From Candidatus Electrothrix aestuarii (GTDB lineage: Bacteria; Desulfobacterota; Desulfobulbia; Desulfobulbales; Desulfobulbaceae), in the NCBI GenBank assembly GCA_032595685.2, contig CP159373.1, positions 1,881,001 to 1,945,000 of the forward strand: a DNA stretch of 64,000 nucleotides, given 5' to 3'. Shown here piece by piece: positions 4,724-21,569 of the stretch. Position 1 is the first letter of the stretch. Each line of letters opens with the position of its first letter. Under the pieces are notes generated by a model, which made no database searches, was not told the origin of the DNA, and saw only the letters and a program-made list of their open reading frames with translations. The position numbers and the translations under genes are program-made.

Positions 4724-5777
4724 CGTTCATCTCTCCTTTGAGACTTCTGTTCGTAGACCGGTCAATACTATCAACCTGATTTGACTGCATTTGGATGCAG
4801 GTGCCGAGAATATCTTTACCTCAAGCCCTGAATCCGCTTCACAGAATTTTTTGAAGCTAAAAAATGAAGTACCACAAAGATTAATATTGGTCAATAAAGA
4901 AATTTACCACTTAGTGGTATTTTTTGTTGATTACAGGTTTGGCATAGCCTTCTGTCTGGCCTTGGTAATACAGATTATCCTTTGTGCGGTAAGGAAATTT
5001 CTCGGAATAGAAAGAGTCTGTATTTGAAAAATGCAGACGTTGAAGTGATAGAGGACGAAAAGAGGAGGAGGTCTGGTAAATCTCTGCCTAATGTGTGAAG
5101 GCAATTAATAAAACTCAGGAGCCCTGCTGTGAAACTCGACCTGCTGGCCCTATTAATTGCCCTCTTAAATATTTGATACCATATTTTAGCATTCTTTTAA
5201 AGATATTTTTTCGAAAATACAATATGTTGCAAGGTGTGCACAAGGCGTTTTTTGTGTAAAAAATATACAGAGCCTACGCTAAGGTTTGTTTTGCTCATGT
5301 AGTTCATAGAGGCCGGGCAGGAGTATCTCTTCTCGATACGTTGAGCGCTGATTTTATTTTGTCATAGCCTCTGCTCAGGGGCGGGTATTAATTTCTTGAC
5401 AAGAATATAGCCTCGTTTTACGGTGCCGAAAAGCATGGATAAACGTTTGTTTATGTTCTTTTGATTGTTATAGAGTGTTATGTGCCCTTGCTCGTTGCGT
5501 ATTTTTTCAATACCGCTGCTCCACGAGTGTTTGACGCCTATATGAAATTGAAATCAGCAACAGGGCTGGTTGGTTGTTTTGTCAATTTTGATGATTTGTG
5601 AGTGATTTTAGAAAAAATATGGGCATTAAGGTGATTTCTTGTACACATGCCTATTAAAAAGGTGCCTGATCGTCTAAGATAAGAATATAGCTCACCAGGA
5701 AGATAGAGGCAGAGCTAGCTTTCCTTCCAGTTTTTGTCTGCAAGCATTTTTATTCGATCAGCGAGAAAAGATATATT
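4724..5777. other. Gene-free kilobase between divergent sqr and symporter genes
   Basis: No convincing gene is present. The longest open frame here (4791-5027, plus) has no family resemblance or good ribosome site. The stretch must contain the promoters of the leftward sqr operon and the rightward symporter gene. It also holds a small perfect repeat CTGCAT-TTGG-ATGCAG at 4785-4800 just upstream of sqr, and a larger inverted repeat at 5100-5161 that is listed separately. The base composition is AT-rich compared with flanking genes. Confidence 0.6.
5100..5161. repeat. Long-armed inverted repeat / candidate structured RNA
   Basis: GGCAATTAATA at 5100-5110 pairs perfectly with TATTAATTGCC at 5151-5161 across a 40-base loop. 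The loop itself can form a short inner hairpin (CAGG-AGC-CCTG). It lies in the gene-free interval between sqr and the symporter. It could be part of a small RNA, a protein-binding site pair or a remnant of a small mobile repeat; nothing in the sequence decides between these. Confidence 0.4.
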
Positions 5778-16809: not shown

Positions 16810-18572
16810 ACATGGCCCACATTCCGCACGTTGACATCTCAGAAAAATATTTTATAACCTGCTGCTACAGAACTATATTTTTCTCATCAATCAGACAGGA
16901 TGTATGGAAAGCAAAACAACTCTTTTATCGCAGGAATGCTCCAGTAAGATTCTCAATCATTTGGGTTTAGTAGCCGGTACGTATGATGAACTCGGACTGG
17001 GCGAGTTAATTGACAGTTTGATTCCTCAGGATAAAGAGAAACGGGTGGTCTCGGTCGGTCAGGCAGTTAAGGCGATGGTTGTTAATGGGTTGGGGTTCGC
17101 AAATCGGGCACTGTATCTGACCCCGCATTTTTTTCAGGACAAGCCTGTGGATCGACTCATCGGAGAAGGCATTAAGGCTCAGGACCTGAACGACACAGTG
17201 TTAGGTCGGGCCTTGGACACAATTTACAAGCATAATCCCGAAGAGTTATATGCGTATCTTGCGGTCAGGACAGTTGAGCGTCTCGGATTATTTGTCCGTT
17301 TCGGCCACTTGGATTCAACAAGCTTTCATACCGATGGCAGCTATCAGGACAACGGATCAGAAGAGGAAGATGGTGTTGTTCGGATTACAAAAGGCTACAG
17401 TCGGGATCATCGTCCAGATCTAAACCAGATTGTTTTGCAGCTGATTTGTGAACGACAAGCTGGTATCCCGCTTCTCATGAAACCGCTCAGTGGCAACAGT
17501 AGCGACAAAACAGATTTTCGGAAAACAATTCAAGCGCATATTGATCAGCTGAAAAACGATTTCATCCTGAAGTATCTGGTTGCAGACAGTGCGCTCTATA
17601 CAGCGGAGACACTCAGGGAATTGAGCAGGATCTTGTGGATTTCCCGAGTGCCGGAGACCTTGGCCCTGTCCCGGGAAGTTATCCATGCAGTAGCACCAGA
17701 TTTGATGAAGGATCCAGAACAAGCAGCTTTTCGCAGTCTCGGGATAGAGTATGGCGATGTCAGGCAGCGCTGGTTAGTTGTCTATTCTCCTGAAGCATAT
17801 CAACGAAATCTCAAGACCGTGAACAAAAAATGTCTGAAGTTGAGCACAGCTGAGGCCAAGCAGTTCGATAAATTATGCAAGCAGGATTTTTCTTGCGAGG
17901 CTGATGCGTTAAAGGCCTTCTCCCGTTTTGAAAACAAACTGAAAATGCTCTCAATTCATGGCGCTCATGTTGTTGCCTTGCCTCGTCATACGGGGAAAGG
18001 ACGACCTGCCAAGGGGAAACATCCGGATTTTTATGTTTATCGAATTGAAGGCAACCCAGCATCCCTGCTTCATGAGAGAACTCGGTTGTTGGAGCGAAAA
18101 AGCTGTTTTATTCTGGCAACGAACCAGTTGGATTGCGAAGAGTTGTCCGATGAGGAACTTCGGGAAGCGTACAAAGATCAGCAAAAGGTTGAGCGGGGCT
18201 TTCGCTTCCTCAAAGATCCATTTTTCATGGCTTCCACTCTTTTCCTGAAATCTCGAAAACGTATCATGGCCCTGATGATGGTCATGACCCTTTGCCTTCT
18301 CGTTTATGCAGCTTTAGAGTATCGTATCCGGGAAGAGCTTGATACAAATAACGAAACTTTCCCAAATCAGAAGGGAAAGCCCGTTTCTGCTCCTACAGCC
18401 CGTTGGGTATTTCAGTTTTTTTCAGGAATTCATGTGCTGATTATCGGGGGTGCGCAACAAGCAGTTTTAAATTTGAATGAGCACCACCTGCGTCTACTCA
18501 GATTGTTGGGTGCGAGGTATGAAATACTATATTCCTGAAATTGACAAAGGGTATGCGGAATGTGGGACATGG
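16810..18572 (+). mobile_element. IS1634-family insertion sequence with 6-bp target duplication
   Basis: The element spans 16816-18566. Its ends are imperfect inverted repeats that share 13 outermost bases, CCCACATTCCGCA at 16816-16828 and the reverse complement at 18554-18566. The flanking bases ACATGG at 16810-16815 and 18567-18572 are identical, a 6-bp target-site duplication within the range known for this family. The transposase frame is full length, so the copy appears intact and probably young. It landed upstream of the leftward unknown gene at 16119-16754. Confidence 0.88.
16904..18538 (+). CDS. IS1634-family transposase
   Basis: A 544-residue DDE transposase. The N-terminal DUF4277-like domain (LNHLGLVAGTYDELGLGELI, VSVGQAVKAMVVNGLGF, DLNDTVLGRALD) is diagnostic for IS1634-type elements. 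The catalytic triad can be placed at the Asp of GHLDSTSFHTDG, the Asp of LVADSALYT, and the Glu of KVERGFRFLKDP. The length is typical and no stop or frameshift is visible. The ATG at 16904 follows ACAGG. It is the only gene in the element. Confidence 0.92.
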   Translation: MESKTTLLSQECSSKILNHLGLVAGTYDELGLGELIDSLIPQDKEKRVVSVGQAVKAMVVNGLGFANRALYLTPHFFQDKPVDRLIGEGIKAQDLNDTVLGRALDTIYKHNPEELYAYLAVRTVERLGLFVRFGHLDSTSFHTDGSYQDNGSEEEDGVVRITKGYSRDHRPDLNQIVLQLICERQAGIPLLMKPLSGNSSDKTDFRKTIQAHIDQLKNDFILKYLVADSALYTAETLRELSRILWISRVPETLALSREVIHAVAPDLMKDPEQAAFRSLGIEYGDVRQRWLVVYSPEAYQRNLKTVNKKCLKLSTAEAKQFDKLCKQDFSCEADALKAFSRFENKLKMLSIHGAHVVALPRHTGKGRPAKGKHPDFYVYRIEGNPASLLHERTRLLERKSCFILATNQLDCEELSDEELREAYKDQQKVERGFRFLKDPFFMASTLFLKSRKRIMALMMVMTLCLLVYAALEYRIREELDTNNETFPNQKGKPVSAPTARWVFQFFSGIHVLIIGGAQQAVLNLNEHHLRLLRLLGARYEILYS

Positions 18573-19183: not shown

Positions 19184-20257
19184 TCACACCCTCACATCCA
19201 ATACATCTGCCAGCCGCCCATAATACTGATCCCGCACCAGGTCCAGCAGCGCGGCATAGTTATTCACCCGGACGTTCAGGCTGGTGACAGCTGATCCGAC
19301 AAAGCCCGGCAGGGTGTATTCGCCATCCTCCGTGACGGTCACCGCCGCACCCGCATCCCCGTCCTCGGTCATGCCGAGCAGGCTGAGGAGCAGGACGCTG
19401 TTTCTGATATCAAAGACCGCCTGGATGCGCAGCATTTCGTCCGCCGTGACTGTGCCGCCGATCGCACTGACAAGGGGACTGGTGGTATTGCTGGTCAGGA
19501 TGCCGACTTCCGGCGGGTTGGGATGGCCAAAATCAGTCAGCAGCAGGAGCGAGCGCAGCTTGCGGCGGTAGACACCGATACGCGGGCTGCCGTGGCCGGT
19601 GGGTCGGGTCGAGACAGTGAGCGTGTATTCGTTATTGAACGGCTCATCCTGAGCAGGGATATCCGGGACCAAGACAATGCTGGAATCCGAGATCGGGCCG
19701 AACTGGTCCTGCACGGCCTCGCCGCTACGGGTACCCTCAATCACGCATTTGCACCCCTCCGCATCCGGGTCAAAGGCTAGGCGGGTGCCGCTGAGATGGA
19801 GCACACCCTTGCTGTAGAGCACATTAGCCAGATGGAGGCGGGTATCCTCAATACTGTCGATTACCGGCCCTTTCTCGCTCATGGGCAGCTTCTCGAAATG
19901 GGCCTGCTGACTTATTTCCTTGAGGAAGGGTTGCAGCACCCGCACACTGACATGTAGGGTCTCGTCCGCCGGTGGGAGAGGATCATCCGGCGACTCCAAT
20001 CTGCCGGTAAAGGAAAGGCCAAAGGAGAGCATGCCGTCTATGGTCGCCTGATCGCCACTGAGCAGCTTCTTCTGAATGACCCGCTCCAGGAGGGCCAGCG
20101 CGGTCTTGGCATCTTCGATGCTGTAGTTCGGGTTCTCTTCATGCATTGCGACCGTCAGGTCATCTGTTCCAGATGAACCGCGAGGCACGAAGCGAATTTT
20201 GTAGGAAGGGGGAACGGTGAGGACGTTAGGTTCGGGCCGCCATTGGATCGTAGGCAT
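19184..20257 (-). CDS. DUF4469-like protein with HU-like N-terminal region
   Basis: A 357-residue protein without signal peptide. The first part (SYKIRFVPRG through VRVLQPFLKE) has the look of the HU-like domain found before DUF4469. The middle section (GEAVQDQFGPISDSSIVLVPDIPAQD through NEYTLTVSTR) resembles the beta-rich Ig-like DUF4469 domain. A further about 110-residue domain (PEVGILTSNTTSPLVS onward) follows. The ATG at 20257 is preceded by GGAG at proper spacing. The promoter region upstream holds a striking array of palindromes at 20408-20469. DUF4469 proteins are uncharacterised; DNA binding is inference from the HU-like part. The assignment is by resemblance only. Confidence 0.55.
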   Translation of the reverse strand: MPTIQWRPEPNVLTVPPSYKIRFVPRGSSGTDDLTVAMHEENPNYSIEDAKTALALLERVIQKKLLSGDQATIDGMLSFGLSFTGRLESPDDPLPPADETLHVSVRVLQPFLKEISQQAHFEKLPMSEKGPVIDSIEDTRLHLANVLYSKGVLHLSGTRLAFDPDAEGCKCVIEGTRSGEAVQDQFGPISDSSIVLVPDIPAQDEPFNNEYTLTVSTRPTGHGSPRIGVYRRKLRSLLLLTDFGHPNPPEVGILTSNTTSPLVSAIGGTVTADEMLRIQAVFDIRNSVLLLSLLGMTEDGDAGAAVTVTEDGEYTLPGFVGSAVTSLNVRVNNYAALLDLVRDQYYGRLADVLDVRV

Positions 20258-20407
20258 GATATACTCCAATATTGAGGTGGAATGCTGCGCCGATAGGTAA
20301 GTGTTGATTTTTCACAGATTAATTCTGCATTCTTGTCCTGTCAAGATGTATTTCAAGGCGGCGGGCTGCTGATCAGACAGGAAAGAGGATGGTCAATACG
20401 AATCCGT

Positions 20408-20469
20408 CGTTATAGGTATAACGAATTTGCCGTGATACGTATCACGATTTTTTCATGATACCTATGACG
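20408..20469. promoter_or_regulatory. Array of three 16-bp palindromes with exact 23-bp period
   Basis: Three related 16-base palindromic units occur at 20408-20423 (CGTTATAGGTATAACG), 20431-20446 (CGTGATACGTATCACG, perfect) and 20454-20469 (CATGATACCTATGACG). Their centres are exactly 23 bp apart. A weaker fourth unit continues the period at 20477-20492 (TGGGATACGAATAATG). The array lies about 150 bases upstream of the leftward DUF4469-like gene and downstream of the nucleoside hydrolase gene. It looks like tandem operators for a dimeric DNA-binding protein that stacks cooperatively. The rest of the 320-base interval shows no gene. Confidence 0.7.
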
Positions 20470-20578
20470 GAACCGGTGGGATACGAATAATGATGGAAAG
20501 CGGGTGAGTATCCGCTTGGCAACGGAACAAGGAGGTGGGTGAGCTCTTCCAGGGAGGAAATACCCTGGCGTGAGCCTT

Positions 20579-21466
20579 TCATACAAAGGTAGAAAAAAAG
20601 GTGTCGAAAAAAAGCTCCTTGTCTGCTGAGGTGGCTATCTGATGCTGGCCTGGGTATGCAAAGGGTTCTGGCAGCCAATGCGTGTATCCCAATAAGCGGC
20701 TGCTTTGCAGTTCCACTTCCACGCTTCCCTGTTCCAGCCCGCAGATACGTTCATCAAAGATGGTTGCTGCCGCCAGGGGATCATGAAAAATAACCTCGTC
20801 ACGATCTTCAAACCATATCCGGGCAAAATCCAATACAGGGCGGAGGAGATCATGTTGGGCAAAGCGGTCCATGACCTCCTGCTTGCCCATGCGGATATCA
20901 TGGGTGACATCGGCCCCGATGGAACGATGAACAGCCACCTGATGATTATAGACTATCGCCGTTGCGTACGGGTCCTGGCGGGCGTTCCATTCCAAGGGAT
21001 CAAGCCGTCCCAGGCGTCGCTGAAAAAGGCCGCACATCAGGACCAGCCCTTTGAGCAGAGATGGAATTTCAGGGTCAAGGGTGAAGAGGGTGGCGATGTT
21101 GGTCATAGCGCCTATGCCGAGTAAGGTGATTTCTCCTGGATGCTCATGGATGGTCTCCATGAGAAAGGGAATCGCCTTGTTCCTGGGGAATGTTTGTTCA
21201 TGCGGCCAATGTGCTAAGGCCTCTGCCTGCTGCGCTTCATCCTGCATAATCGGGCTGAGCATCGGATGCGCCAGGCCGGGGAAGATTGGGATATCCTGGC
21301 CTGCGATCTTGCATAAGGCGCTTGCGATCATGGCGCGTTTTTCAGGCTCTCCTGATACCGTGCTTATCCCCATCAGTTCACAGGCAGGATGTGCCAGAAG
21401 ATAGGCCAGACAGATGGCGTCATCTATATCCGTGCCGATATCTGTATCTAATAATATTTTTTCCAT
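20579..21466 (-). CDS. Nucleoside hydrolase (inosine-uridine preferring family)
   Basis: A 295-residue enzyme predicted to cleave the N-glycosidic bond of ribonucleosides, releasing base and ribose for salvage. The N-terminal [13 protein letters not shown] is the calcium-binding Asp cluster of the family. [12 protein letters not shown] is the conserved central block, and [11 protein letters not shown] near the C-terminus carries the late His/Asp motif. I chose the ATG at 21466, immediately before the conserved core. A longer frame exists upstream but runs through the terminator hairpin of the next operon. GGAG lies twelve bases ahead. Substrate preference (purine or pyrimidine) is not determined. 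Confidence 0.87.
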
Positions 21467-21494
21467 GCGGCTTGTTACTCCTTCATTGCTTGCA

Positions 21495-21535
21495 TAAAAA
21501 AAGCGGCATCTCAACCCGAAGGCTGAGATGCCGCT
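21495..21535 (-). terminator. Rho-independent terminator of the sodium:solute symporter operon
   Basis: AGCGGCATCTCA (21502-21513) and TGAGATGCCGCT (21524-21535) form a perfect 12-bp stem with a ten-base loop. Read on the minus strand it is followed by a run of seven T (21495-21501). It lies 35 bases past the stop of the symporter gene. Confidence 0.9.
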
Positions 21536-21569
21536 CATAATAGTAATGATACTGTATTAACTCAGTTCA

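What the first reader, a model, noticed from the sequence alone, without database searches (positions are those of the whole stretch)
20385..20500. Phased palindrome array upstream of a DUF4469-like gene
Three 16-bp palindromes (one perfect) are centred exactly 23 bp apart, with a degenerate fourth unit in phase. Exact spacing and shared half-sites (C-G-T-G-A-T-A-C) imply cooperative binding of a dimeric protein along one helical face series. The downstream gene has an HU-like N-terminus, so autoregulation by the gene product is an attractive idea. Alternatives are tandem operators of an unlinked regulator or an iteron-like origin remnant.
Basis: partly seen in the sequence, partly recalled or inferred. 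Interest (0 to 1): 0.62.

Follow-up and report, generated by a model that had tools for sequence, protein, structure and literature searches.

The report
Private operator arrays of cable-bacteria HU-like genes
In cable bacteria, many members of a family of DNA-binding-like genes seem to carry their own, differently worded but identically spaced row of DNA landing sites in front of them, and the row in this window is one of that set; what binds these sites is not yet tested.

Summary
The array is real: 16-bp palindromes at 20408, 20431 and 20454 pair 7, 8 and 5 of 8 positions, exactly 23 bp apart. It lies upstream of a TTGACA/TAATCT promoter and a leftward gene (ATG 20257) for a HU-fold, DUF4469-type protein. 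The genome groups with cable bacteria, probably Ca. Electrothrix.

The gene belongs to a paralogue family there (23 matches in this genome, fragments included; 33 in the richest of those searched). Of 89 deduplicated upstream regions, 74 hold a tandem array; in 73 the best period of 17-30 bp is 23. Sequences differ: none of 314 same-genome pairs share an array (similarity >0.7), while 10 of 10 pairs with proteins >=90% identical do. The 73 arrays form 39 types, 23 palindromic. In a 464-kb sample the only array of lag 23, 46 or 69 at >=0.63 was the window's.

Best explanation: each HU-like protein binds its own array cooperatively and regulates itself, plus a few distant arrays. Binding is inferred. 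Against: three genomes carry window-type arrays but no close cognate was found, and both protein halves track the array equally. No description found in the papers searched.

The parts
20385..20407 (+). degenerate in-phase unit (GAGGATGGTCAATACG + AATCCGT; 2/8 palindromic pairs)
20408..20430 (+). unit 1: palindrome CGTTATAGGTATAACG (7/8) + 7-bp spacer
20431..20453 (+). unit 2: perfect palindrome CGTGATACGTATCACG (8/8) + spacer
20454..20476 (+). unit 3: CATGATACCTATGACG (5/8) + spacer; a similar unit ends several sister arrays
20477..20499 (+). degenerate in-phase unit (TGGGATACGAATAATG; 3/8)
20339..20344 (-). -35 box TTGACA of the HU-like gene, about 64 bp from the first clear palindrome
   Evidence: TTGACA 6/6 in 70 of 73 family members with arrays
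20316..20321 (-). -10 box TAATCT, 17-bp spacing, 58 bp before ATG
19184..20257 (-). HU-like/DUF4469-type gene, 357 aa: HU/IHF-fold N-terminus (about 25-121), Ig-like domain (about 127-237), further beta-rich part
20579..21538 (-). neighbour: nucleoside hydrolase gene whose 3' end faces the array

Best explanation
The array is the private operator of the HU-like gene next to it. A dimer of the gene's product most likely binds each 16-bp palindrome, and dimers line up at 23-bp steps (about 2.2 helical turns) into a short nucleoprotein filament upstream of the promoter, so that the protein controls its own synthesis. The same protein would act at the few distant arrays of the same type. Cable bacteria carry many such protein-array pairs, each with its own site sequence but one shared geometry. 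Shown: the arrays, the common period, the dyads in most of them, private sequences, the promoter layout, the HU fold as a predicted model, co-distribution of gene family and arrays. Inferred: that the product binds, that it is specific and cooperative, and the sign of regulation.
For: Array in 74 of 89 deduplicated upstream regions; best period 23 of 17-30 bp in 73 of 89 (threshold taken from the shuffled maximum). First pass: best lag of 12-69 exactly 23, 46 or 69 in 71 of 88 upstream regions, 5 of 88 after shuffling. Fair control: at self-match >=0.63 with lags 12-69, 65 of 88 HU-like upstream regions pass at lag 23, 46 or 69, but in 464 kb of the same genome (window plus 20 stretches; the window holds the only HU-like match there) only the window's own array does, of 14 tandem arrays found; at >=0.60 one more, of lag 69, appears. 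Spacing of successive units exactly 23 in 308 of 321 steps, with units 21% different from consensus. 75 of 107 arrays (imperfectly deduplicated) palindromic at p<0.01; by type 23 of 39 at p<=0.01. 0 of 314 same-genome pairs share an array, 10 of 10 pairs >=90% identical do; Mantel r 0.45, 0 of 2000 permutations as high. Window type kept in Ca. Electronema aureum (73% protein identity, array similarity 0.83; highest of 1500 null values 0.63). TTGACA 6/6 in 70 of 73; -10 mostly 55-62 bp before ATG. Genes in 8 of 37 genomes and 2 of 27 genera; window-type arrays in the same two genera plus one weak hit in a third.
Against: G003, G006 and G016 hold window-type arrays, but the tree, which lacks some of their proteins, shows no window-clade member there and their best match is 56% identical; one G003 array has eight nearly uniform units. 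In G007 the orthologous gene is broken although its array is long. Array similarity follows the N-terminal and C-terminal protein parts equally (partial r 0.251 and 0.245), so the HU domain is not singled out as reader. 43 listed pairs more than 65% identical have arrays below similarity 0.6; this can mean switching or no link. Many window-type units are asymmetric, and 11 of 39 types are not palindromic at p<=0.05. 15 of 89 genes lack an array. Several distant arrays show no promoter by eye in the 200 bases printed after them.
Confidence: 0.57

Rival explanations
1. The arrays are neutral or selfish minisatellites that travelled with duplicating gene modules. Unequal crossing-over keeps the 23-bp period while sequences drift; nothing need bind them.
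For: Unit number differs between orthologous loci (window about 3-5 units, G007 8-9). Lone arrays exist away from the genes, some in genomes where no close cognate was found. A homogenised array in G003.
Against: Dyad symmetry in 23 of 39 types; arrays sit upstream of a conserved promoter; type kept across two genera; the period is not general in a 464-kb sample.
Confidence: 0.2
2. The arrays are bound by other regulators or one shared nucleoid factor, and the HU-like product does something else.
For: Array similarity tracks both protein parts equally. Arrays persist where no close cognate was found.
Against: One shared factor would hardly read 39 sequence types; separate unlinked regulators would have to change in step with each gene.
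Confidence: 0.15
3. Iteron-like origin, partition site or mobile-element end.
For: Phased palindromic repeats upstream of a gene resemble iterons (recalled). Some family genes are present in one of two close genomes and absent at the matching place in the other.
Against: No relative in 72,556 plasmid or 50,697 phage records and none confirmed in viral contigs. The product has an HU-like fold. The two sites compared showed replaced segments, not a clean empty site.
Confidence: 0.04
4. The palindromes act as RNA hairpins in a 3' or leader transcript.
For: By eye, 17-18 of 22 window-type arrays lie on the 3' side of a neighbouring gene.
Against: The array lies upstream of the gene's promoter. Many units of this type are asymmetric. 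No Rfam family matched in the window.
Confidence: 0.04

Closest known systems
HU-DNA_bdg / DUF4469 and HU-HIG proteins (PDB 4fmr, BVU_2165 of Bacteroides vulgatus)
   Different: No target site of that protein came up here; whether its gene carries a 23-bp array was not tested.
HU and IHF
   Same: Residues about 25-121 align with HU and IHF chains (Z 7.1-8.7, rmsd 3.1-5.0). IHF also acts at specific sites (recalled).
   Different: Recalled: HU is mainly non-specific and IHF sites are asymmetric; I know of no private palindromic array per paralogue.
Autoregulated repressors with tandem operators
   Same: Palindromic, phased sites upstream of the gene's own promoter.
   Different: The fold is not a usual repressor fold (recalled), and each genome has several to many paralogues with one geometry and different site sequences.
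Iteron-Rep modules of plasmids
   Same: Phased repeats upstream of a gene whose product binds them (recalled).
   Different: In the chromosome-sized contig of this genome, multi-copy, HU-like fold, no plasmid relatives found.

Membership tests
HU/IHF superfamily | HU fold in the N-terminal domain | tested here: met
   Model mean pLDDT 90.1; HU/IHF chains aligned to residues about 25-121, Z 7.1-8.7. Z under 8 may be a common arrangement; Pfam agrees for relatives (HU-DNA_bdg in 30 of 50 at E<=0.01).
Pfam HU-DNA_bdg (PF14848) | window protein reaches the curated cut-off | tested here: not met
   24.7 bits against 30.
Pfam DUF4469 (PF14734) | Ig-like DUF4469 domain | tested here: inconclusive
   23 of 50 relatives at E<=0.01, not the window protein; seven other loci of this genome over the cut-off.
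Autoregulated tandem operator | palindromic sites upstream of own promoter | tested here: met
Autoregulated tandem operator | cognate product binds and regulates | not testable with these tools
   needs gel shift or reporter
Iteron-Rep origin | plasmid or phage replicon with an initiator protein | tested here: not met
   HU-like fold; no plasmid or phage relative at E<=0.01. Origin activity itself was not testable.
ParB-parS type partition | ParA/ParB partner genes | not tested
   Downstream neighbours look diverse but were not scanned by profile.
Variable-number tandem repeat | unit number varies between orthologous loci | tested here: met
   window against L073, L006 against L072

The most novel reading that the evidence does not exclude
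Cable bacteria have evolved sets of up to some thirty mutually orthogonal HU-fold protein/array pairs that share one 23-bp filament geometry but read private sites. Because the pitch is common, different paralogues could even co-assemble in one filament: one lone array in G007 (L316) joins units of two types in exact 23-bp phase, the second type resembling the private array of a Ca. Electronema paralogue (similarity 0.80). Such pairs could serve as chromosome addresses or cell-state switches in a multicellular filament.
Probability: 0.25. Interest if true: 0.9.

Novelty: new variant of a known kind. Interest (0 to 1): 0.72.

Why it matters
If the pairing is real, an HU-fold protein family has become sequence-specific and diversified into many orthogonal protein-DNA pairs inside one genome, all with one spacing. 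That would be a natural experiment in how the HU fold acquires and switches DNA specificity, a ready set of orthogonal regulators, and a lead to gene or chromosome control in multicellular cable bacteria, which are not yet in pure culture (start of the abstract of PMC13064052, seen in the listing).

Tried and rejected
A gene-specific array as a one-off: replaced when sister arrays of other sequence appeared. Cargo hypothesis (array plus HU-like gene carries variable downstream genes): of 87 nearest downstream ORFs, taken mechanically, 47 are on the opposite and 40 on the same strand, with no rule visible by eye. In-phase palindromes beyond array ends: no excess (1.94 against 1.90 paired positions of 8). 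Mobile module with clean empty site: two sites compared, segments replaced rather than precisely inserted. Control of other ORFs in fetched loci (11 of 208 with lag 23, 46 or 69 at >=0.6) is biased, as most of these loci were fetched for their arrays. My first genome control scanned lags 13-40 only and so could miss arrays best seen at lag 46; I repeated it with lags 12-69. Rfam: nothing at gathering scores. Foldseek on the first, poorer model gave 4fmr and Ig domains of antibodies. Folds not listed are not excluded.

Distant family members: 5 of 6 looked at have a lag of 23, 46 or 69 (L330, L333, L334; G003_253369 and G004_C62_16611); G007_1947909 has none.

Literature: listings only, some empty; term searches inside PMC11976967, PMC10926707, PMC10030654, PMC10580974, PMC12093952 and PMC13047784. 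These showed no description of the arrays or of this family. Subscription journals are mostly not held. No paper was read whole.

Rows dropped or not seen: loci L074, L079 and L084 of the 20 fetched gave no chain of two units at my threshold. Thirteen of the 75 named loci were left out of the family set as partial. The 89 genes are a part of the family; for G000 they are 8 of 23 matches, many of the rest fragments. The genome searches with the two-unit model scored 150 candidates per genome, of 1301 for G000, so weak arrays may be missed. L232 was dropped from an alignment.

Full report
Observation. The window holds 16-bp palindromes at 20408, 20431 and 20454 (7, 8 and 5 of 8 pairs), centres 23 bp apart, with weak in-phase units on both sides; the triple score is reached once in 64 kb at that spacing and in none of 100 Markov simulations. 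It is at the same time a direct repeat of period 23. Over sister arrays the unit is CGTKATAC, a variable right half (inverted, as GTATMACG, or direct, as YCGATRCG) and a 7-bp spacer.

Surroundings. The array lies between the 3' end of a nucleoside hydrolase gene and the promoter of a gene on the minus strand: TTGACA at 20339-20344, TAATCT at 20316-20321, ATG at 20257. The product (357 aa) has a weak HU-DNA_bdg match. With a 50-member alignment the model reaches mean pLDDT 90.1, pTM 0.63. The closest solved structure is 4fmr (Z 12.9); HU and IHF chains align to residues about 25-121, and an Ig-like domain follows. I read the large rmsd with 4fmr (20.4) as domain placement.

Copies of the window-type array. 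In the window's genome (5.11 Mb, one contig) I found four such arrays: the window's, one upstream of a broken paralogue, and two beside unrelated genes. A two-unit sequence model finds matches in 9 of 37 genomes, own included: seven of eight of the genus, one of another genus of the family, and one weak single hit (150 candidates scored per genome). In the fetched loci of eight genomes I read 22 arrays, six with a HU-like gene beside them. Unit number differs between orthologous loci: the window has 3-5 units, its G007 orthologue 8-9.

The family. A search with the protein gives matches in 8 of 37 genomes, in the same two genera, with 2 to 33 matches each and 23 in this genome, fragments included. 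Named contigs place the family in cable bacteria and close Desulfobulbaceae bins: Ca. Electrothrix gigas and aarhusensis, Ca. Electronema aureum and sp. KV, Desulfobulbus sp. F5, unnamed bins, and one contig labelled Ca. Fermentibacteraceae that may be mis-binned (75 loci from two peptide patterns, so distant relatives elsewhere are not excluded). Contig lengths equate G001, G002 and G016 with JAABTP, QYLO and JAABPV, and identical arrays G004 with MTKO; the window's organism is inferred only to genus level, Ca. Electrothrix. With the DUF4469 model 294 of 297 genomes drawn from the phylum have no match at E<=0.001, and only this one passes the cut-off. No relative was found in plasmid, phage or viral collections at the limits used.

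Private arrays of one period. Upstream of paralogues stand arrays of other sequence but the same period. In a first pass the best lag was exactly 23, 46 or 69 in 71 of 88 regions, against 5 of 88 after shuffling. After deduplication 74 of 89 have an array and 73 of 89 have 23 as the best of periods 17-30. Steps between units are 23 bp in 308 of 321 cases. Of six distant relatives looked at, five have such a lag. As a control, 464 kb of the same genome, window included, holds 14 tandem arrays at self-match >=0.63 and lags 12-69; the only one of lag 23, 46 or 69 is the window's own, and the window has the only HU-like match in that sample. At >=0.60 there is one more, of lag 69. By the first measure 65 of 88 HU-like upstream regions pass.

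Dyads. 75 of 107 arrays (imperfect deduplication) are palindromic at p<0.01 against column shuffles; by type, 23 of 39 at p<=0.01 and 28 of 39 at p<=0.05. In the 32 types with the clearest symmetry the pairing extends to about 16-18 bp and falls off beyond, with a weaker central pair. Symmetry in unrelated sequences is hard to explain without a symmetric reader; this is my inference.

Specificity. None of 314 same-genome pairs share an array at similarity above 0.7; 10 of 10 pairs with >=90% protein identity do. Forty-three listed pairs above 65% identity have arrays with similarity below 0.6. The window type is shared with the orthologue in Ca. Electronema aureum, with which it groups at support 1.0. 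Which part of the protein tracks the array could not be separated; in pairs roughly matched for identity, differences were larger in residues 16-45 and 106-120, a hint only.

Promoter layout. The best-scoring promoter has a perfect TTGACA in 70 of 73 and a -10 box mostly 55-62 bp before ATG, while the detected array ends 4-154 bp upstream of -35. A steady promoter and gene behind a variable array is what a changing operator would look like.

Distant arrays. Of the seven other G000 types searched, four clearly and one weakly (E 0.004) match further places in G000 or G007 besides the gene's own. Nine of the ten distant loci examined hold no HU-like match, one (L306) sits before a broken HU-like gene, and most show no clear promoter by eye. 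One G007 array (L316) joins two types in exact phase.

Results against. G003, G006 and G016 carry window-type arrays, yet I found no close cognate there; not every protein of these genomes was in the tree. The G007 cognate is broken into two overlapping reading frames. Fifteen of 89 genes lack arrays. These facts fit gene loss, a second reader, assembly errors or partly neutral arrays.

Verdict.

Noticed in passing
L080 (G003:C1:1654000-1665000), about 5481-5700: A window-type array of eight nearly uniform units lies some 25-30 bp from a degenerate end repeat of a CRISPR-like array (GTTTCAATCCACGCCCCCGTGAGGGGGCGAC).
   Followed up: no
L018 (G000:C1 near 2918893): Regularly spaced copies of TGTCATAACCCAGGACGTCCCGGAGTGTCATTGTGAC, CRISPR-like by eye.
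   Followed up: no
L073 4592-5682: The G007 orthologue of the window's HU-like gene is broken into two overlapping ORFs in different frames (or an assembly error), although its array is long.
   Followed up: partly
L008 3338-4044 (G000:C1:4776373-4776989): A second, broken relative of the window's gene lies beside a nine-unit window-type array.
   Followed up: partly
L009 about 5188 against L073 about 4601: Orthologous loci of G000 and G007 lose homology within a few bases of the HU-like gene's stop codon; the genes beyond differ.
   Followed up: partly
L240 (JADGDO010000021.1): A family member with its own 23-bp array on a contig labelled Ca. Fermentibacteraceae, perhaps mis-binned or transferred.
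   Followed up: no
L277 19868-20000: Tandem repeat of 21 bp (GCCTTGATTGAAGTGTGAATC) in G000, not of the 23-bp kind.
   Followed up: no
window 16904-18538: DDE transposase gene with a DUF4277 domain, about 0.6 kb beyond the HU-like gene's 3' end.
   Followed up: no
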